Below, one piece after another: positions 11 through 7,912 of a DNA stretch of 7,912 bases. Numbering within the stretch: position 1 is the first letter of the stretch; the number at the start of each line of letters is the position of its first letter. This stretch comes from J061 sp003695725 [NCBI: Candidatus Schekmanbacteria bacterium] (GTDB lineage Bacteria; Schekmanbacteria; GWA2-38-11). The DNA is taken from positions 1 to 7,912 of the forward strand of contig RFHX01000276.1 of assembly GCA_003695725.1 (NCBI GenBank), written 5' to 3'. A program made the translations under genes and the position numbers. The notes beneath the pieces are model-generated. The model searched no databases, was not told the DNA's origin, and saw only the letters and a program-made list of their open reading frames with translations.

Positions 11-226
11 ATGAAAAATGCATATCAAAAATGTATGAAGGTAGAAGAGATTCATAAAAGATGTATCTATTTTAAAAAAAAGACAGTTTTTAAATGTCTT
101 GGTTTTACAGAGGGAATTAAATTCCCGAGCAGAAAGGAAATTGTTGCTTTTTGTTTGTCAGGAGATTTTGAAAACTGTCCAGTTTACAGAAAAAAAGAAA
201 ATCTGAATGAAGAGAAGAGTAAATAA
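11..226 (+). CDS. small cysteine-rich protein, possibly 5'-partial
   Basis: I do not recognise this gene. The 71 residues hold five cysteines (C8, C18, C29, C48, C56), spaced C-x9-C-x10-C-x18-C-x7-C, with a C-terminal CLSGDFENCPVY segment. This looks like a small metal- or Fe-S-binding domain, but there is no signal peptide, membrane segment or CXXCH motif, so it is probably cytoplasmic. The reading frame has no stop between the left edge and the ATG at 11, and no clear ribosome site precedes that ATG, so the true start may lie outside the window. Its last 20 bases overlap the start of the cytochrome gene at 207 in a different frame, which suggests translational coupling and co-transcription. 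The tail is lysine/glutamate-rich. A chance ORF is possible, but the cysteine pattern and tight linkage argue that it is real. Function is unassigned. Confidence 0.55.
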   Translation: MKNAYQKCMKVEEIHKRCIYFKKKTVFKCLGFTEGIKFPSRKEIVAFCLSGDFENCPVYRKKENLNEEKSK

Positions 227-2189
227 AAATAGAATTGCAGATTTTGAAAAGAGAAAAATTGATTTTGAAAGCATCCTTATATTGTCATCTTTTTTGCTAT
301 TTTTCTTTTTTTCTCCTTTTTCTGTTATTTCAGCAGATGAAATTTTATGTATTGAATGCCATGACATTCCTGAGAAGGACAAGAATATGAATTATGTCCA
401 TCGCGGCATTGACTGTGTAGATTGCCATTCAGATATCTCTTTTTCTGAGGACCCTCACACAAGAAGTAAACTTTCTTCAAGGCAGATATGCGGAAACTGC
501 CATACAAGGGAGTATGAGCTATTACAAAAAAGTGTTCATGGAAAAAAGAAAAGTGCATTCAAATCATATGCCTTGGAATGTTCAGATTGCCATGGTAATC
601 ATTTAATCATTAAAGAGGATGAGAAAAAAGTAAGTGCTATGCGTGTAAAAATACCTTCTATTTGCGCAGAGTGCCATAATAGCGTGAAATTTGTGGAGGT
701 TTCAGGAGGAGTATATTCAAGAAAGGTCTATGTCCAATATGAAAACAGCGTTCATGGTGAATCTTTTGGCAAAGGTGTCTTGGCTGCAGCAATATGCACA
801 GATTGCCATGGCGCCCACAATATAAGGAATCCTGCTGACTACAAATCCACAGTTGCAAGGAATAGTATTGCCCAAACCTGCGGCAACTGCCATTACGGAA
901 TATTTATCAAATATAAAAAGAGTATCCATTATGCGGCTTTGCAGAAAGGAATATCACGTTCACCAGTTTGCACTGACTGCCATGGTATTCACACAATTAC
1001 AAGTATCGAGAATGGTTCTGACTCTGTCATTGATGCTGAAAGGAAGATTGTCTTTGATTCCTGTGTCCGCTGCCACGATGATGTACGGCTTAGCAAAGAA
1101 TATCAGGTTGCACCGCAGAGGGTGTCAAGCTATTTGCAGAGTTATCATGGATTGGCAGCACGGCAAGGAGAAACAACAGTTGCCGACTGTGGGAGTTGTC
1201 ATGGCGTCCATATGGTTTTGCCATCAAGCAATCCTGAATCATATGTCAATAAAAATAATCTTTCAACAACCTGTGGGAAATGCCACCCAAAGGCAAGTGA
1301 AAATTTTGCTTCTGGAGTAATTCATATCACCAAGACGCAGAGTGGCGGAAACGATTCTGAGAAAATACTTTTCTATATAAAATGGATATACATTTTTCTT
1401 ATAATAGTGACTATTTCGGGTATGTTCATTCACAACTTTCTCGACTTCATCCAAAAGATGAAGCTCCATTTTCAAGGAAAACTTCATTCAGAAAAAAGGA
1501 GCGAAGTCTTTTATGAACGACTTAATCTCAATGAAAGAATTCAGCATTTTTTCCTTCTCATCTCTTTCATTTTTCTTGTTGTTACAGGTTTTGCTCTTGT
1601 TTTTCCTGATTCATGGTGGACACTACCATTCCGAATTATTGAAGGAGGTGCTTCTTTGAGGGGATTGATTCATAGAATCGCAGCTGTTTTTCTAATGGGG
1701 ACTGCTCTTTATCATATCTATTTCATTACAGCCACTGAAAGAGGAAGATTCGAGCTTAGAAGTATGCTCCCATCCGATAAGGATTTGAAAGATATGCTTG
1801 CAAACTTTGCTTTTCTGATAGGTTTAAAAAATGAAAAACCAAAGTATGACAGGTTTAATTATATTGAAAAGAGCGAATACTGGGCATTGATATGGGGCAC
1901 AGCCGTGATGGTAATAACCGGACTTATTCTATGGTTTGAAGAGGAAACTTTATTGTTCTTCCCAAAGATTGTAATAGATATTGCTGAACTTGTGCATTAT
2001 TATGAAGCATGGCTTGCCACTTTAGCTATCATTGTTTGGCATATATACTATGTTGTCCTAAATCCTTCAGTCTATCCAATGAATTGGTGTTGGTTAACAG
2101 GAAAGATATCGCTCGATGAAATGAAGGAAGAACATCCTATTGAACTTGAGAAAAGGGAAGAGCTTATTCATATTCAAGAGACAGGATAG
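207..2189 (+). CDS. fused 11-heme cytochrome c / FdnI-type cytochrome b (CbcL-like)
   Basis: Probable quinol:periplasmic-cytochrome oxidoreductase of 660 residues. Residues 1-43 form a Sec signal with a long charged n-region and a Phe/Leu core, cleaved near ISA/DE. Eleven CXXCH sites follow, starting at C48, 70, 95, 125, 153, 197, 225, 255, 286, 328 and 356. SVHG-type and CHGxH histidines between them are likely distal ligands, and H373 probably serves the last heme. A membrane helix at 388-410 and a basic linker (411-440) lead to a four-helix cytochrome b domain at about 447-466, 487-508, 558-577 and 600-618. Its conserved histidines are H447, H489, H503, H597 and H612, and it has the FdnI-family loop NYIEKSEYW. 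The predicted topology puts the c hemes in the periplasm and the C-terminus in the cytoplasm. The architecture matches Geobacter CbcL, which has nine c hemes; substrate and direction are inferred. The start at 207 is the only ATG before the signal peptide, and its ribosome site is weak. Confidence 0.9.
   Translation: MKRRVNKNRIADFEKRKIDFESILILSSFLLFFFFSPFSVISADEILCIECHDIPEKDKNMNYVHRGIDCVDCHSDISFSEDPHTRSKLSSRQICGNCHTREYELLQKSVHGKKKSAFKSYALECSDCHGNHLIIKEDEKKVSAMRVKIPSICAECHNSVKFVEVSGGVYSRKVYVQYENSVHGESFGKGVLAAAICTDCHGAHNIRNPADYKSTVARNSIAQTCGNCHYGIFIKYKKSIHYAALQKGISRSPVCTDCHGIHTITSIENGSDSVIDAERKIVFDSCVRCHDDVRLSKEYQVAPQRVSSYLQSYHGLAARQGETTVADCGSCHGVHMVLPSSNPESYVNKNNLSTTCGKCHPKASENFASGVIHITKTQSGGNDSEKILFYIKWIYIFLIIVTISGMFIHNFLDFIQKMKLHFQGKLHSEKRSEVFYERLNLNERIQHFFLLISFIFLVVTGFALVFPDSWWTLPFRIIEGGASLRGLIHRIAAVFLMGTALYHIYFITATERGRFELRSMLPSDKDLKDMLANFAFLIGLKNEKPKYDRFNYIEKSEYWALIWGTAVMVITGLILWFEEETLLFFPKIVIDIAELVHYYEAWLATLAIIVWHIYYVVLNPSVYPMNWCWLTGKISLDEMKEEHPIELEKREELIHIQETG
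489..1271 (+). repeat. tandem tetraheme super-repeat in the fused cytochrome
   Basis: Protein-level repeat. Residues 95-224 and 225-355 each contain four CXXCH sites arranged as a short two-heme module (58 or 61 residues) followed by a long one (72 or 70). Each module reads CXXCH, then an (S)(V/I)H(G/Y) or YHG element, then CxxCHGxH. The long copies share an extended tyrosine-containing segment before the histidine and a GxxxAxxC approach to the second site. The copies are diverged at DNA level, so the duplication is old. A lone closing site at C356 and an N-terminal two-heme module (C48/C70) flank the pair. Confidence 0.65.
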
Positions 2190-2194
2190 GAAAT

Positions 2195-3433
2195 ATGATG
2201 AAAATAGATGAAAAGAACTTTACAATTATTTTGTCATTATTTTTCGTTTTCTTGATTTCAATGAATTCATCTGCAGAAATAAAGTGTACACAATGCCATA
2301 GCGAAAAAAGTATCTTGAAATCCAAGCGAGGAGATAAACTTTATATTGACCTTTCAAGATACACAACATCTGTGCATGGAGATCTATTATGCAGAGATTG
2401 TCATTCAGAGATTGGAGAGGTAAGGAGCTCTCTTGACCATGGGGAAAATGCGAAAGAAGTAAGATGTGAAGACTGCCATGAAGAAGAATATGAAATCTAT
2501 CGAAAAAGCGTTCATGGATGGTCAAAAAAATCACATAAATATTCGCCGCCTTACTGCTCAGATTGTCATGGCACTCACTATATTTCCTGTGTAAGTGATC
2601 CAGACTGCCAGGTTTCTCCTATCAATCAAATAAAAGTATGTATTAAATGCCATGAAGATGAAAATGTCGTAAATGATTACGGTCTTCCATCGATAAGATT
2701 TATTCAGTCTTATGAAAAAAGTGTTCATGGTAAAGCCATAGAAGAAAAGGGATTATTAGTGGCGGCAGTGTGCAGTGATTGTCATGGAGGGCACGGCATA
2801 CGAGAGATAAAAGATATAAATGATGTTGTCTTCAAAAAGGATATAGTTACTATTTGTGGCCGCTGTCACAAACCAATAATGGAAAATTATAAGGCAGGAA
2901 TACATTGGACAGCCTTAAATAATGGAATAGTTGAAAGCCCTTCCTGTATAAATTGTCACGGAGAGCATGAAATCTTGCCTCCAACAGATAAGAAGTCATC
3001 TGTATTTACCGCAAATATTCCATCAACTTGTTCCAAATGTCACGAAAATGAAACTATTTCGTCTGCTTACGGTATACCGTCAGGACGTTTTAAAACATAT
3101 ATGGATAGTTTCCATGGTCTTCTTTTAGAATACGGTGAATTAAAGTCTGCAAACTGCGCAAGCTGTCATGGCGCGCATAAGATTCTTCCTTCAACAAATC
3201 CTGAATCAAGAGTTTATAAAGATAATTTGCCCCATACATGCGGCAAGTGCCACCCCAATGCGGGAGAAAAATTTAAGAATGTAAAGATTCACATTACTGC
3301 TGATAAAGATGTTTCGCCGGGCAAGTATTATATAAGGAAATTTTATGTTTGGTTTATAGGAATACTTGTAACTTTCTTTTTGATTTATGTGGCAATGGAG
3401 CTTTATAGCTATTTCTCTAAGAAGAAGAGCTGA
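2195..3433 (+). CDS. membrane-anchored 11-heme cytochrome c
   Basis: Periplasmic electron carrier of 412 residues, paralogous to the c domain of the preceding fused protein. The signal peptide is residues 1-27, cleaved near SSA/EIK. CXXCH sites start at C31, 66, 91, 121, 149, 193, 221, 251, 279, 321 and 349, with SVHG/FHG and CHGxH histidines as likely distal ligands and H366 after the last site. A single C-terminal membrane helix (about 381-404) ends in a lysine-rich cytoplasmic stub. That helix corresponds to residues 388-410 of the fused protein, so this gene is the c half of a split version of that protein, and the next gene two bases on is the b half. Two extra cysteines (C132, C138) occur in the loop after the fourth heme. 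Translation could start at either of two adjacent ATGs (2195 or 2198); the TAGGA element overlapping the upstream stop codon is better spaced for 2198. The electron-transfer role is firm, the partner is inferred from context. Confidence 0.9.
   Translation: MMKIDEKNFTIILSLFFVFLISMNSSAEIKCTQCHSEKSILKSKRGDKLYIDLSRYTTSVHGDLLCRDCHSEIGEVRSSLDHGENAKEVRCEDCHEEEYEIYRKSVHGWSKKSHKYSPPYCSDCHGTHYISCVSDPDCQVSPINQIKVCIKCHEDENVVNDYGLPSIRFIQSYEKSVHGKAIEEKGLLVAAVCSDCHGGHGIREIKDINDVVFKKDIVTICGRCHKPIMENYKAGIHWTALNNGIVESPSCINCHGEHEILPPTDKKSSVFTANIPSTCSKCHENETISSAYGIPSGRFKTYMDSFHGLLLEYGELKSANCASCHGAHKILPSTNPESRVYKDNLPHTCGKCHPNAGEKFKNVKIHITADKDVSPGKYYIRKFYVWFIGILVTFFLIYVAMELYSYFSKKKS
2465..3238 (+). repeat. tandem tetraheme super-repeat in the 11-heme cytochrome
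   Basis: Protein-level repeat of residues 91-220 and 221-348, 130 and 128 residues long. Each copy is a 58-residue short module plus a 70-72-residue long module, and each module carries two CXXCH sites. The long modules share YGxPSxRFxxYxxSxHG before the second site (residues 162-179 and 292-308), which shows they are true duplicates and not merely spaced heme motifs. The short modules share the CHGxHxI ending. Confidence 0.7.
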
Positions 3434-3435
3434 CA

Positions 3436-4125
3436 ATGACTAAAGAAAATCAAAAAAGCTTTTCAAGGTTTAATATAATTTTTCGAATTCAGCATATTCT
3501 GCTTATGCTATCGTCTATAGTGCTTGGAGTGTCGGGCTTTGCTTTGCTTTGGCATTCAACCGAAGTTGCAAAGATGATAATAAGCATTGGTGGCGGTTAT
3601 ACAGGAAGGGCTTATATTCACCGTATTGCGGCAATAATTTTGATTTTTGATGGCTTGTGGCATCTGTTATACATTTTATTTTCAAAAGATGCACATAATG
3701 AATTCTTGAAAATTATTCCTTCCTTTTCCGATTTCAAGGAGTTGGCTAAAGCCGTTTCTTATTATCTGTCTAACAATAAGGAGTTTCCAAAGTTCAAGAA
3801 ATTCAATTTTATACAGAAATTCCAGTATTGGGGTGTGGTCTTAGGAATGATGATAATGATTTTAAGCGGTTTGGCGCTCTGGTTTAAAGATATCTCGATG
3901 ATGATTTTACCTAAATGGGCAATGGATGTGCTTTTGACATTGCATGGGCGAGAAGGTTTGCTTGCCTTCTTAGTGCTTTTTTTATGGCACCAGTATAATG
4001 TTCATTTGAATCCATCGGTATTTCCAATGGATAAGATTTGGTTAACAGGAAGGATAAGTGAAGATAGACTTAAAAAAGAACATTATTTAGAATATGAAGA
4101 GATTATTAAAACAAATTTGAATTGA
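3436..4125 (+). CDS. cytochrome b subunit, FdnI/HydC-like
   Basis: Integral membrane cytochrome b of 229 residues, presumed to oxidise menaquinol and pass electrons to the 11-heme cytochrome encoded immediately upstream. Four helices lie at about 19-38, 60-82, 131-150 and 171-188. Histidines conserved with the two sister b domains are H20 (RIQH), H62 (IHR), H76 (LWH), H170 (LHGREGLLA) and H185 (WHQYNVH), enough for two b hemes as in FdnI. The loop FNFIQKFQYW matches the family's pre-helix-3 motif. The basic N-terminus suits a cytoplasmic location. The C-terminal tail from NPSVFPM to about residue 222 is strongly shared with the other two b domains here. The ATG at 3436 lies two bases after the upstream stop, with a purine-rich GAAGAAGAG serving as ribosome site inside the upstream gene, so the two are probably translationally coupled. 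The family is clear; the direction of electron flow is inferred. Confidence 0.88.
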   Translation: MTKENQKSFSRFNIIFRIQHILLMLSSIVLGVSGFALLWHSTEVAKMIISIGGGYTGRAYIHRIAAIILIFDGLWHLLYILFSKDAHNEFLKIIPSFSDFKELAKAVSYYLSNNKEFPKFKKFNFIQKFQYWGVVLGMMIMILSGLALWFKDISMMILPKWAMDVLLTLHGREGLLAFLVLFLWHQYNVHLNPSVFPMDKIWLTGRISEDRLKKEHYLEYEEIIKTNLN

Positions 4126-4131
4126 AAAGAT

Positions 4132-5208
4132 ATGAAAAATAGGAAAAATAATAGAAAAGATTTACTTTCTTTAAAGTTTATATCTTTGTTCATTTTTTTC
4201 ATCTTTCTCTCGCTATCTGTATATGCTCAGCCAGATGATACCAAATGTCTTGTGTGCCATGGGAAGAAAGGTTTTTCAAATCCCCTTTCTACTGGAAGAA
4301 TTTTAAATCTATATGTAGATGCCAAAGAATTGAGGAAATCGGTACATTCTGAAAAATCCTGTACAGATTGTCATTCTGATGTTCTTTCAATTCCACATCG
4401 CAATGAGATCAACAAGGTAAATTGTGCTGAAAGATGCCATTTTGTTGGCAATCCTTCAGGGGCGCCGGAAACAGTAAAGTATAGTGAGTATTTTCAAAGT
4501 GTCCATGGACAGGCTCTTTTGAAAGGAGTTTCTTCTGCACCTATATGTCAGGATTGTCACGGTAGCCACGATATCTATAAACCTGATAATGAAAATTCAA
4601 AGGTCTCAAGAAAAAATATCCCAAAAACATGCGGTAAATGCCATCTTCAGGAATATGTCGATTTTACTAATTCTGTTCATGGTGAAGCATACCAAAAAGG
4701 GAATCCAGATGTTCCTGTTTGCACAAATTGCCATGGTGAACATAAAATCTTATCTCATGATAATCCCAAATCTACTGTCTATGCAAGCCATATAAGGGAA
4801 ACTTGTTCTGCCTGTCATGAAAAAATGCAAATTATGGAGAAATACGGTGTATCGACTGAACAGGTAGAAACATATGAAGAGAGTTTTCACGGCATAGCCA
4901 ATGAATTTGGAATAAAAACTGCGGCTAATTGTGCAAGCTGTCATGGATATCATAATATCAGGCCTTCATCCGACCCAAAATCTACAATCTATAAGGACAA
5001 CATTCCAAAAACATGCGGTAAATGCCATCCGGGAGCCAATATAAATTTTGCAAAAGGGAAAATGCATATAAATCCCAAGAAAAAAGAATCAGGTATTGTT
5101 TATTATGTGGCACAATCATTCAAGTATCTCACCATTTCTGTAATGCTTGCATTGGTTGCTCACATAATTTTGGATTTGAGAAAAAGACTGAAAAAAACGG
5201 AGTCTTGA
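4132..5208 (+). CDS. membrane-anchored cytochrome c with 8 CXXCH plus one CX3CH site
   Basis: Third paralogue of the periplasmic multiheme domain, 358 residues. The signal peptide is residues 1-32, cleaved near VYA/QPDD. Canonical sites start at C39, 77, 139, 167, 197, 225, 267 and 295. The expected site between C77 and C139 is CAERCH (C98-H103), with one extra residue between the cysteines. SVHG/FHG and CHGxH histidines are present throughout, and H312 follows the last site. A C-terminal membrane helix (about 325-347) ends in a basic cytoplasmic tail. Relative to its two paralogues it has one 58-residue two-heme module fewer near the N-terminus. An exact 25-base direct repeat lies inside the gene (4621-4645 and 5005-5029). 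It pairs with the cytochrome b gene three bases downstream. Periplasmic electron transfer is well supported; whether the CX3CH site holds a heme is open. Confidence 0.9.
   Translation: MKNRKNNRKDLLSLKFISLFIFFIFLSLSVYAQPDDTKCLVCHGKKGFSNPLSTGRILNLYVDAKELRKSVHSEKSCTDCHSDVLSIPHRNEINKVNCAERCHFVGNPSGAPETVKYSEYFQSVHGQALLKGVSSAPICQDCHGSHDIYKPDNENSKVSRKNIPKTCGKCHLQEYVDFTNSVHGEAYQKGNPDVPVCTNCHGEHKILSHDNPKSTVYASHIRETCSACHEKMQIMEKYGVSTEQVETYEESFHGIANEFGIKTAANCASCHGYHNIRPSSDPKSTIYKDNIPKTCGKCHPGANINFAKGKMHINPKKKESGIVYYVAQSFKYLTISVMLALVAHIILDLRKRLKKTES
4621..5029 (+). repeat. exact 25-base direct repeat, 384-base period, inside the 9-site cytochrome
   Basis: The bases at 4621-4645 are identical to those at 5005-5029, including third codon positions; both encode PKTCGKCH plus the first base of the next codon. 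The offset of 384 bases equals 128 codons, exactly one tetraheme unit. Identity stops abruptly on both sides. Confidence 0.85.
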
Positions 5209-5211
5209 GAT

Positions 5212-6174
5212 ATGGATGATAACAAAAGAGATGACAGTTTCAGCACAGAGAAAAACAAAGAGCTAACTACTCTTAAAGAAACGATAAAAGAGCAGGTTCT
5301 AAATGAATTGAGAGAAAAATACGGCAATGGATTCAAAAAGGATGAGCTCGAAAAGATTGCTTCTCGAATCTTAGAGGATTATGTGGAGATAAAGGATAAA
5401 GTACTTCTTGATTATATCAGAGAAGAGGAAAGAAAAAAAGAGAGAGAAAAAAAAGAAAAACCTGCGGAAGAAGAAAAGGAAGAATTTTTTATTCGTTTTG
5501 GACTAAATTTCAGACTTCAACATATGCTTCTTTTTACAAGTTGTATTGTTCTTATTTTAACAGGAATCCCCGAAAAATTCTATTTTACTTCACCTGCCGC
5601 TTTTTTTATCAACCTTGTGGGAGGAATGAAAACGATAACTTTGATACACAGAATAGGCGCTGCAGGCCTTGTATGTATGTTTCTCTATCACTGCCTAATC
5701 TATACTCCTTTTACTCGTCAGGGCAGAAGCGATTTCATAGAGCTTTTGCCCCGTTGGAAAGATGTGACTGATGTGATTCAGATGATTAAGTATTTTTTCG
5801 GGAAAACAGATGAGAAGCCTAAATTTGGCAGATTCTCTTACATTGAAAAATTCGATTATTGGGCAGTATATTGGGGCTGTATCATAATGATTGGCTCAGG
5901 TTTTTTGATGTGGTTTGAGGTTGAATCAATAAATCTCTTTGGGAAGGTAATAGTAGATATATGTAAAGAAGCGCATAGCGATGAAGGATTGTTATGCACT
6001 CTTGCAATATTGATTTGGCATTTTTACAATGTTCATTTCAATCCTCGAGTTTTCCCAATGAGTTGGGTGTGGTGGAATGGAAAAATATCAAAAGAAGATA
6101 TGATTGAAGAGCATCCTCTTGAATATGAAAAGATTATGATGAAAAGAAATAAAGCAGTAAAGAAAAATGAATAG
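5212..6174 (+). CDS. cytochrome b subunit with charged helical N-terminal extension
   Basis: Membrane cytochrome b of 320 residues, presumed partner of the 9-site cytochrome c encoded three bases upstream. The b domain starts near residue 94, with helices at about 104-118, 143-165, 216-235 and 257-274. Histidines H104, H146, H160, H255 and H270 match the sister proteins, and FSYIEKFDYW is the family loop. The tail NPRVFPM...WNGKIS...EEHPLEYEK is shared. Residues 1-93 have no counterpart in the other two b domains. They are almost entirely Glu, Lys, Asp, Arg and aliphatic residues, are predicted helical and probably coiled-coil, and become a near-pure Glu/Lys/Arg run at 70-90. This segment should lie in the cytoplasm and could mediate assembly or docking. 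The ATG at 5212 is preceded by CGGAG, and translation may be coupled to the upstream gene. The domain call is strong; the role of the extension is unknown. Confidence 0.88.
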   Translation: MDDNKRDDSFSTEKNKELTTLKETIKEQVLNELREKYGNGFKKDELEKIASRILEDYVEIKDKVLLDYIREEERKKEREKKEKPAEEEKEEFFIRFGLNFRLQHMLLFTSCIVLILTGIPEKFYFTSPAAFFINLVGGMKTITLIHRIGAAGLVCMFLYHCLIYTPFTRQGRSDFIELLPRWKDVTDVIQMIKYFFGKTDEKPKFGRFSYIEKFDYWAVYWGCIIMIGSGFLMWFEVESINLFGKVIVDICKEAHSDEGLLCTLAILIWHFYNVHFNPRVFPMSWVWWNGKISKEDMIEEHPLEYEKIMMKRNKAVKKNE

Positions 6175-6197: not shown

Positions 6198-7912
6198 ATG
6201 AAGAAAAAATTTATTATAACAGGCATTATAGTTTTAATTTTCTTATTACTATCTGTTCTCTTTTACAGAAATTTTCAAAACCCATCTTTTTGTACGAGAT
6301 GTCACTATATGGAGCCCTATTATGAAGGGTGGAAAGAATCTTCTCATAACAAAGTAAGGTGTCTTCAGTGTCATGATTACAGTATCCCAAAGATAGTCCT
6401 TAGTTCCATTGTATATTTTATGGGATATTACAATCCCCGTCCTATAGGCGATGTAAAGAATGAGAGCTGTATGCAGGCAGGATGTCATAGTGACAGGATG
6501 GTAAATAGTGTTGTGGCATTTGAAAATAAGATAAAATTTGACCATTCGAAGCATATGGGAAGGCTTCTTCGAGGAAAAATGCTTAGATGTTCAAGCTGTC
6601 ATTCTCAAATTGTCCAAGGAAATCATATAGATGTAACAAAGGAAACCTGCTTCCTTTGCCATTTCAAAGGAATGAGTGAAGATAAAGCATATACAGGTTG
6701 TCCATCTTGCCATGGTGTACCTGACGGAGAGGTCACTCATGGCGGTTATTCGGTCAATCTTTCTGAATATATAAAAACAGGTATAGAATGCAACAGGTGT
6801 CATACAAAGGTTGTAAAGGGAGATGGTAGAGTTGATAAGACACGATGTTTTTCCTGTCATCCTGAAAGAATGGAAAAGTTTGATGATCATAAATTTATTC
6901 ATGATAAACATGTGTCAGAAAAAGGGATTGACTGTTTTTATTGTCATCAAAAGATATTACATGGAAATGTCCAGATGGCAAAACCGTTAGAGGTAAAATG
7001 CGACAGCTGTCATAGAAAACTTCATAGCGGCCAAAAGGAGATGTATATGGGGGTTATGGCAAAGAATGTAGAAAGTACGCCAAGTCGTATGTTTGCGGCT
7101 CAGGTTTCCTGTGACGGATGCCATACTGAAGTTCATTTCATAAAGGGGCGTCATATCCTTGGCGAAGCGATGGCTGAAGCAAATGAAAAATCCTGCCTTG
7201 CTTGCCATGAGAAAGGATATGACTTAATGCTTCGTTCATGGAAGAGAAATATTGAAAATCTGCTTCTATACACTGAAAAGAGGTTTAAGAAGCTTCCATA
7301 TAAAATAATGAAGGATGAAGATAAGAAGACATATGAGGATATGGATTTCAACTTAAATTTTTTGAAACGTGCAAAGGGAATTCATAATGTTGAATATGCC
7401 GTTAAAATTTTGAGAGGAATAAATGATTTTGAGGACAAATTTTTGAAAGGAAGTTATAAGGACAGAAGATTGGATGATTTAATGAATATGAATACTTCGT
7501 ACTGCACGACCTTTTGTCACAACTATATAAAAAAAGATTCTATCCTTGACTATAAAGGGAATGATTTCCCTCATGAAAAACATTTTAAAAAATTTGGATT
7601 AGAATGCACAGACTGTCATTCATCGCAAAAGCATAAGGAGACAACAATAAGCTATGAGGAATGTGCCGCTTGTCATCATAGTGATGATGAGGCAAACTGC
7701 AAGAGATGTCATTTTGACGAAGCCACTTTATATTTTGGTTTAAAGCAAAAAGACTTGCCCAAAATTGTCCCTGATGTGATGGCTGCATCGGAGGTTAGAT
7801 GCAATGATTGTCACTTGCCAACGGAAGATTCTTCTTCAACGGACGCTATATCAAGATGTGAAAATTGTCATGATGAAAACTATAAAGAAATGCCACAAGA
7901 GTGGAAGATTAA
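6198..7912 (+). CDS. NapC/NirT-anchored giant multiheme cytochrome c, 3'-partial
   Basis: The ORF is open to the right edge (571 codons plus two bases), so its length and last hemes are unknown. Residues 5-24 are an uncleaved membrane anchor. The next segment has the NapC/NirT/NrfH layout: CTRCHYM (C32, with M38 a possible heme ligand), a Trp-x4-SH element and a second site at C55, which in this family form the quinol-oxidising head. Further canonical sites start at C131, 151, 168, 198, 217, 246, 268, 305, 333, 470, 489, 501, 535 and 554, giving 16 in all. Two expanded sites, CMQAGCH at C91 and CTTFCH at C436, make 18. FDHSKH and FPHEKH elements before heme pairs resemble cytochrome c3-type units. 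A heme-free, charged, probably helical stretch spans about 341-432. Known NapC/NrfH proteins have four to five hemes and ImcH has seven, so this is a much larger relative. Likely a quinol-to-periplasm conduit; the acceptor is unknown. Confidence 0.88.
   Translation, partial: MKKKFIITGIIVLIFLLLSVLFYRNFQNPSFCTRCHYMEPYYEGWKESSHNKVRCLQCHDYSIPKIVLSSIVYFMGYYNPRPIGDVKNESCMQAGCHSDRMVNSVVAFENKIKFDHSKHMGRLLRGKMLRCSSCHSQIVQGNHIDVTKETCFLCHFKGMSEDKAYTGCPSCHGVPDGEVTHGGYSVNLSEYIKTGIECNRCHTKVVKGDGRVDKTRCFSCHPERMEKFDDHKFIHDKHVSEKGIDCFYCHQKILHGNVQMAKPLEVKCDSCHRKLHSGQKEMYMGVMAKNVESTPSRMFAAQVSCDGCHTEVHFIKGRHILGEAMAEANEKSCLACHEKGYDLMLRSWKRNIENLLLYTEKRFKKLPYKIMKDEDKKTYEDMDFNLNFLKRAKGIHNVEYAVKILRGINDFEDKFLKGSYKDRRLDDLMNMNTSYCTTFCHNYIKKDSILDYKGNDFPHEKHFKKFGLECTDCHSSQKHKETTISYEECAACHHSDDEANCKRCHFDEATLYFGLKQKDLPKIVPDVMAASEVRCNDCHLPTEDSSSTDAISRCENCHDENYKEMPQEWKI

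What the first reader, a model, noticed from the sequence alone, without database searches (positions are those of the whole stretch)
207..6174. Fused and split versions of the same b/c electron-transfer machine, side by side
Seen: a c-plus-b fusion (207-2189) is followed by two c/b gene pairs (2195-4125 and 4132-6174). The C-terminal helix of each stand-alone c protein matches the linker helix of the fusion (residues 388-410), so the split falls in the cytoplasmic linker between that helix and the RIQH helix. Inference: one unit was tandemly duplicated and either fused or split once. Three paralogous modules with different heme inventories in one transcript suggest tuning to different potentials or acceptors, not simple redundancy.
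Basis: partly seen in the sequence, partly recalled or inferred. Interest (0 to 1): 0.62.

Follow-up and report, generated by a model that had tools for sequence, protein, structure and literature searches.

The report
Three ancient membrane cytochrome modules together
A little-known bacterium carries, in one gene row, three related membrane machines that probably pass electrons from the respiratory chain outward; they are not recent copies of each other but three old types, and two of them travel together as a fixed gene cassette across distant bacterial groups.

Summary
The window is a whole 7,912-bp contig of a Ca. Schekmanbacteria-lineage MAG. It encodes a fused 11-heme c plus FdnI-like b protein (F1), two split c/b pairs (M2: 11 hemes; M3: 8 CxxCH plus one CxxxCH) and a 16-CxxCH NapC-type cytochrome (g6).

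The proposed origin, one local tandem duplication with one fusion or split, is rejected. In separate c and b trees F1, M2 and M3 fall into three clades, each spanning several phyla; AU tests reject grouping the window's three modules (p 9e-71 for b, 2.5e-98 for c). Every F1-clade member with an identified c part is fused; every such M2 and M3 member is split.

New here: an M2-type b gene directly precedes the M3 pair in 16 of 17 loci, and a g6 homologue follows in 16 of 16 checkable ones: a conserved cassette, with F1 an optional neighbour. The c proteins' C-terminal helix, shared with F1's linker, carries a histidine in 120 of 145 proteins (Tyr in 10 of 12 M2), so it is probably part of the b unit, not a plain anchor.

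Most likely these are CbcL-like menaquinol:multiheme-cytochrome oxidoreductases feeding extracellular electron transfer. Direction and division of labour are inferred. F1 is no orthologue of Geobacter CbcL.

The parts
11..226 (+). small ORF (71 aa, 5 Cys) overlapping the start of F1 by 20 nt; function unknown
   Evidence: similar ORF just upstream of F1 in G001, G002 and G003 (translations compared by eye); no Pfam match at E<=1; two weak NCBIfam matches far below cut-off
207..2189 (+). F1: fused multiheme c (11 CxxCH) + FdnI-like cytochrome b
   Evidence: F1 clade in the b and c trees
1353..1442 (+). F1 linker transmembrane helix (aa 383-412) with conserved His409 (nt 1431-1433)
1488..2186 (+). 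F1 cytochrome b domain; His447, His489, His597 and His612 align with the four His that I recall as FdnI heme ligands
   Evidence: fold match to FdnI 1kqf_C, Z 16.5 over 206 residues
2195..3433 (+). c2: 11-heme cytochrome c with C-terminal membrane helix (Tyr instead of the conserved His)
3436..4125 (+). b2: FdnI-like cytochrome b of module M2
4132..5208 (+). c3: cytochrome c with 8 CxxCH + 1 CxxxCH (nt 4423-4440) and a C-terminal membrane helix with His344
5212..6174 (+). b3: FdnI-like cytochrome b of module M3 with a charged N-terminal extension of 85 aa (nt 5212-5466)
6198..7912 (+). g6: NapC/NirT-type large cytochrome, 16 CxxCH + CX4CH + CX3CH in the part present; open at the contig end
   Evidence: homologue directly downstream of b3 in 16 of 16 loci where the next gene is visible, three of the 16 being the seeds of the search profile

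Best explanation
The row encodes three ancient, non-interchangeable quinol:multiheme-cytochrome c oxidoreductases of the wider CbcL/FdnI kind. In each, a four-helix FdnI-type cytochrome b with two b hemes exchanges electrons with menaquinol. A fifth helix, fused in F1 but borne by the separate c protein in M2 and M3, packs on the bundle and connects it to a periplasmic row of 9 to 11 c hemes. Electrons leave through these and the large NapC-type cytochrome g6 to periplasmic and outer-membrane cytochromes. M2, M3 and g6 form one inherited cassette; F1 is a frequent but optional neighbour. Shown: domains, conserved His, shared helix, conserved gene order, separate clades. Inferred: two b hemes, menaquinol as partner, outward direction, packing of the fifth helix, and different working ranges of the modules.
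For: Domains and hemes. FdnI relation: only convincing PDB sequence hit is 1kqf_C; fold Z 16.5. The c half of the F1 model gives Z 8.0-9.1 to HAO-type cytochromes and 8.0 to chain A of an Mtr complex (6r2q, which I take for MtrA); by the tool's own warning such Z can mean only a common arrangement. His447, 489, 597 and 612 are present in 119 of 119 sequences of the five groups compared. Linker His in 120 of 145 c tails, the most conserved residue of that helix. Three clades in both trees; AU rejection of local origin. Cassette order; co-divergence of M2 and M3 genes over 12 loci, r 0.70-0.86, 0 of 5000 permutations as high. In the MAG GWA2_38_11 a PPIase, a 25-heme and a 16-heme gene lie in the same direction 0.9 kb before F1; G000 has the homologous three genes on contig C248. 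CbcL, the known fused relative, is needed for low-potential acceptors in Geobacter (PMC9129911, PMC5585712, passages read).
Against: No expression, biochemistry or redox data. F1 does not group with Geobacterales CbcL. MtoC homologues in Fe(II) oxidisers suggest the reverse direction is possible (PMC6295460). One split group (L055, L187, L188) has its c in the M2 clade but its b outside, so pairing has not always been strict. Close co-inheritance of M2, M3 and g6 also fits one complex rather than separate machines. The F1 model has pLDDT under 50 in parts of its first 90 residues and at 133-141, 375-381 (just before the linker helix) and 623-625.
Confidence: 0.72

Rival explanations
1. M2, M3 and g6 are subunits of one larger inner-membrane complex with two quinone-reactive b subunits and three multiheme subunits; F1 is a separate enzyme.
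For: An M2-type b gene is directly upstream of the M3 pair in 16 of 17 loci and a g6 homologue directly downstream in 16 of 16; M2 and M3 co-diverge; F1-clade fusions lie directly before the M2 genes in only 9 of 17; b3 has a charged N-terminal extension in 17 of 17 M3 members, which could be a contact surface.
Against: Co-inheritance in one operon does not need physical contact; the b3 extension is not conserved in sequence; no complex was modelled.
Confidence: 0.4
2. One reading: a local tandem duplication in this lineage followed by a single fusion or split, and later tuning.
For: Adjacent order; 38% mutual identity of c parts and 36-41% of b parts with F1.
Against: AU tests reject it for b and c; each module has closer relatives in other phyla than in its neighbour.
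Confidence: 0.03
3. The modules run inward: electrons from an extracellular or periplasmic donor reduce quinone (MtoC-like).
For: CbcL/MtrH/MtoC homologues occur in Fe(II) oxidisers too (PMC6295460); FdnI itself works inward (recalled); nothing in the sequence fixes the direction.
Against: In G001 and G002 NapC-type genes and a Rieske/cytochrome b complex follow the cassette, which suits outward flow better; this is only an argument from context.
Confidence: 0.25

Closest known systems
CbcL / MtrH / MtoC family (Geobacter CbcL; Zhong and Shi 2018, PMC6295460)
   Same: Fused periplasmic multiheme c and HydC/FdnI-like membrane b; fused homologues with 3 to 23 hemes in 15 phyla
   Different: F1 lies in a separate supported clade, has 11 instead of 9 hemes and lacks the C-terminal tail of Geobacterales CbcL; the passages of the survey that I read do not treat split forms
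CbcBA / CbcABCDE (Cbc5) of Geobacter
   Same: Separate multiheme c (7 hemes) and b genes side by side; proposed menaquinol oxidoreductase
   Different: In 6 of 6 Geobacterales genomes the b profile finds CbcL and, in one of them, one further weak match (E 9e-4), so no M2- or M3-like b; CbcC has 11-12 hemes and CbcD is mono- or diheme (PMC10470525, PMC7894505), unlike c3, b3 and g6. CbcB itself was not identified here
E. coli formate dehydrogenase-N and hydrogenase-1 (FdnI, HyaC)
   Same: Four-helix cytochrome b fold; fold matches Z 16.5 and 10.5-11.0; an electron-transfer partner with one membrane helix (recalled)
   Different: The partner is a multiheme cytochrome, not an Fe-S or catalytic subunit; a conserved His lies in the partner helix (not compared with the FdnH or HyaA helix)
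ANME Mco (VhtC-type b plus 7- to 11-heme c, PMC9012536)
   Same: Split b and multiheme c proposed to oxidise the membrane electron carrier
   Different: Archaeal, b gene before c, b related to hydrogenase VhtC; not included in these trees

Membership tests
CbcL/MtrH/MtoC (for F1) | one chain: N-terminal multiheme c, C-terminal membrane cytochrome b | tested here: met
CbcL/MtrH/MtoC (for F1) | HydC/FdnI-like b domain with conserved His | tested here: met
Geobacter CbcL orthologue (for F1) | groups with Geobacterales CbcL in trees | tested here: not met
Geobacter CbcL orthologue (for F1) | nine c hemes and a further C-terminal tail after the b domain | tested here: not met
   11 hemes; 1 residue after the b domain against 54-59 in eight Geobacterales proteins
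CbcBA (for M2, M3) | b subunit homologous to CbcB | tested here: inconclusive
   b profile finds CbcL in 6 of 6 Geobacterales genomes and one further weak match in one of them; CbcB itself was not identified
CbcBA (for M2, M3) | required for reduction below about -0.21 V | not testable with these tools
   needs mutants
FdnI-type cytochrome b (all three b parts) | Pfam PF01292 over its curated cut-off and the four His aligned with FdnI's ligands | tested here: met
   77.3, 46.1, 38.9 bits against 30.1; 119 of 119
formate dehydrogenase gamma (TIGR01583) | score over the NCBIfam equivalog cut-off | tested here: not met
   65.9, 45.6, 26.5 bits against 115.85
NapC/NirT (g6) | N-terminal NapC domain over Pfam cut-off | tested here: met
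   29.3 bits against 24.1
ImcH (g6) | three N-terminal membrane helices and 6-10 heme motifs (as given in PMC6295460) | tested here: not met
   one predicted helix and at least 16 CxxCH

The most novel reading that the evidence does not exclude
c2-b2-c3-b3-g6 is an undescribed inner-membrane respiratory complex, inherited as one cassette across phyla, with two unlike cytochrome b subunits (one with, one without a His in the helix donated by its c partner). It would let one machine oxidise quinol at two sites of different properties and pour the electrons into a shared chain of 35 or more c hemes.
Probability: 0.3. Interest if true: 0.72.

Novelty: new variant of a known kind. Interest (0 to 1): 0.5.

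Why it matters
Inner-membrane quinol oxidases decide at which potential bacteria can respire minerals and electrodes. So far the fused CbcL type and the split CbcBA type have been discussed as separate cases from Geobacter. Here fused and split relatives sit in one row, and the split ones fall into two old clades that travel as a cassette with a NapC-type cytochrome in Schekmanbacteria, NC10, Kryptonia/Kryptoniota and other genomes. The shared helix with its conserved histidine says what part of the enzyme the split keeps intact and gives a precise site for mutation.

Tried and rejected
Local tandem duplication: rejected by AU tests.

Recent fission of module 3 by the in-frame TGA at 5206-5208: first suspected from the open_frame_aa column and written in note 1; rejected because c3 and b3 are separate genes in all 17 M3 loci and b3 begins with its own extension. 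The correction is in note 2.

Third b heme formed by His409 with His503: not supported, because the two vary independently (Geobacterales CbcL keeps 409 and lacks 503, M2 mostly the reverse).

M2/M3 as Geobacter CbcBA: not shown.

Rfam and tRNA scan: nothing. Promoter and terminator scans: near chance (38 against a mean of 29.6, sd 5.7; 3 against 4.5). DNA repeats: heme-motif and other short repeats only. Literature: (receiver domain with NapC and multiheme cytochrome) 0 papers; one paper, not read.

Rows dropped or limits before counts: five partial b hits; L069, the same contig as L052; 213 b domains thinned to 153 at 75% or 92% identity. Ten b genes had no identified c partner; eight of them remain after thinning and are in the b tree but not the c tree. 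The 'F1' group of 73 was picked by heme number, not by clade. The g6 profile was built from three of the 17 loci (window, G001, G002) and also matches the REC-NapC proteins at about 400 bits, so 'g6 homologue' means the NapC-type large cytochrome family. One search scored only three candidates per genome, so its numbers are lower bounds. One search was given 69 of the 85 genomes with an F1 match. Trees are 'quick' ones with SH-aLRT support only; long branches were flagged.
Full report
WHAT IS THERE. The window is the complete contig C276 of a 2.77-Mb, 374-contig MAG. One of its order-mates, G003, has its match on a contig of 26,965 bp, the length of MGDB01000106.1, Candidatus Schekmanbacteria bacterium GWA2_38_11, which gives the same genes; I infer from this that the window belongs to the Ca. 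Schekmanbacteria lineage. Six genes run on the + strand: F1, c2, b2, c3, b3, g6, with gaps of 5, 2, 6, 3 and 23 nt. A 71-aa ORF with 5 Cys (11-226) overlaps the start of F1, and a similar ORF lies before F1 in G001, G002 and G003 (compared by eye).

HEMES AND MEMBRANE PARTS. F1 has 11 CxxCH, c2 11, c3 8 plus CAERCH, g6 16 plus CX4CH and CX3CH. The CX3CH of c3 recurs in 4 of 4 genomes of the order, at the place where 13 of 13 other M3 proteins have CxxCH; two of those 13 (L053, L195) have instead a CX4CH at their last heme. All three b parts match PF01292 above its cut-off. The only convincing sequence relative in the PDB is FdnI (1kqf_C; E 2.3e-5 for F1's b part, 8.7e-13 for a profile of 14 b parts). 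A model of F1 from 32 sequences (mean pLDDT 77.8, b part mostly above 90) matches FdnI at Z 16.5 over 206 residues. Its c part matches HAO-type cytochromes (Z 8.0-9.1) and chain A of an Mtr complex (Z 8.0), values that may mean only a common arrangement. The numbering of FdnI's heme ligands is recalled; the alignment places His447, 489, 597 and 612 on them.

THE SHARED HELIX. F1's linker helix and the C-terminal helices of c2 and c3 are one homologous element. Its most conserved residue is a His near its far end (F1 His409): 120 of 145 proteins. By group: F1 type 68 of 73, M3 15 of 17, Geobacterales CbcL 7 of 7, the 19-heme type 10 of 10, but M2 only 2 of 12, with Tyr in 10. A residue kept in distant fused and split clades argues that this helix is a working part of the b unit, possibly at the quinone site. 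That role is inference.

ORIGIN. From 213 usable b domains I kept 153 and added 5 outgroup proteins. The b tree puts F1 in a clade of 78 rows (76 fused, 2 b genes without identified partner; support 97), M2 in one of 16 (12 split, 4 without identified c; 99) and M3 in one of 17 (all split; 99). The c tree gives 76 fused (96), 15 split (99) and 17 split (100). Clade members outside the order include the NC10 record L142, the Kryptonia and Kryptoniota records L075 and L131, the Bacteroidetes record L147, and several unnamed families. AU tests on 46 rows reject the three window modules as one clade (b 8.9e-71, c 2.5e-98) and the 12 modules of four genomes as one clade (b 3.5e-62, c 3.4e-5). So the duplications are old. 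Over the whole family the fused/split state needs at least 8 (b) or 10 (c) changes; the 19-heme module occurs both ways. Against a fully neat picture: the b tree joins F1 with M2 (97) and leaves M3 outside, the c tree joins all three (96), so the order of duplication is open; and the c proteins of L055, L187 and L188 fall in the M2 clade, their b proteins outside it. Both trees are of the quick kind and some long branches were flagged.

THE CASSETTE. Of 17 loci with an M3 pair, 16 have an M2-type b directly before it (12 with an identified c2; the c2 of L075, L131, L147 and L190 was not identified), and 16 of 16 with the next gene visible have a g6 homologue directly after it, three of these being seeds of the profile. 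An F1-clade fusion lies directly before the M2 genes in 9 of 17 and, in L195, which lacks M2, directly before the M3 pair. Across 12 loci with all four genes the distance matrices of M2 and M3 b and c correlate at 0.70-0.86, none of 5000 permutations reaching this; shared species history contributes to that. Every M3 b has an N-terminal extension, 54-99 aa in the 15 of 17 whose start is clear, not conserved in sequence.

LIKELY WORKING. By analogy with FdnI and CbcL (PMC9129911, PMC6148476, PMC12307469; passages read), each b part exchanges electrons with menaquinol and the c part passes them on in the periplasm. FdnI-type sites lie on the cytoplasmic side, NapC-type and bc-type ones on the periplasmic side (recalled). 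In G001 and G002 the row goes on to a receiver-NapC protein and a cytochrome b with, in G002, a Rieske protein; G000 has Rieske, cytochrome b, its C-terminal part and a 9-heme gene beside the receiver-NapC gene on contig C354. A row with three b-type modules, NapC-type ones and a bc complex would let a cell choose how much proton-motive force it gains or spends per electron. That would be one way to suit acceptors of different potential.

SURROUNDINGS. In GWA2_38_11 a PPIase, a 25-heme and a 16-heme gene lie 0.9 kb before F1; G000 has homologues of all three (25%, 37% and 37% identity) in the same order on C248. This supports, but does not show, a role in extracellular electron transfer.

KNOWN OR NEW. 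Fused CbcL-like proteins in many phyla are known (PMC6295460, abstract and passages read; in its text 'split' and 'tandem' do not occur and 'separate' only as 'separately'). Geobacter CbcBA/Cbc5 is a known split case (PMC10470525, PMC7894505, PMC11434368; passages read). I found no description of the M2-M3-g6 cassette in searches; these cover only open-licence papers and I read only passages. F1 is a member of the wide CbcL/MtrH/MtoC kind but not an orthologue of Geobacter CbcL.

Noticed in passing
L050:4203-6002 (-), L051:5186-6997 (-), L012:12141-13925 (-), G003:C97:6657-8456: A response-regulator receiver domain (PF00072, phospho-acceptor Asp kept by eye) fused to a NapC/NirT membrane segment and 11 c hemes, the next cytochrome gene after g6 in G001 and G002. 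Matches that include the receiver occur only in the 4 genomes of this order out of 386; the other 35 matching genomes match from residue 125 or later (E<=1e-40, three candidates scored per genome). Suggests a quinol dehydrogenase under phosphorelay control.
   Followed up: partly
L069:4103-9136; G000 C248 = L011:9265-14295: A PPIase gene, a 25-heme and a 16-heme cytochrome gene: 0.9 kb before the F1 cassette in GWA2_38_11, on another contig in G000. Possible outer-membrane or extracellular cytochrome set.
   Followed up: partly
L071, L073, L085, L096, L126 against L054, L061, L077, L133: A 19-heme c/b module is split in Ignavibacteria and Bacteroidetes records but fused in a Calditrichaceae record and others, within one clade of both trees: repeated fusion or fission.
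   Followed up: partly
L075, L131, L147: These Kryptonia, Kryptoniota and Bacteroidetes loci keep an M2-type b gene without an identified c2 partner behind a 17-18-heme fusion; the partner may have been lost.
   Followed up: no
L058:7418-10129, L196:4550-7234: Fusions in which a b domain is followed by about 300 aa with three more c hemes, i.e. a fusion across the next module border.
   Followed up: no
window 11-226: Small ORF with 5 Cys before F1, similar ORFs in three relatives, no Pfam match.
   Followed up: partly
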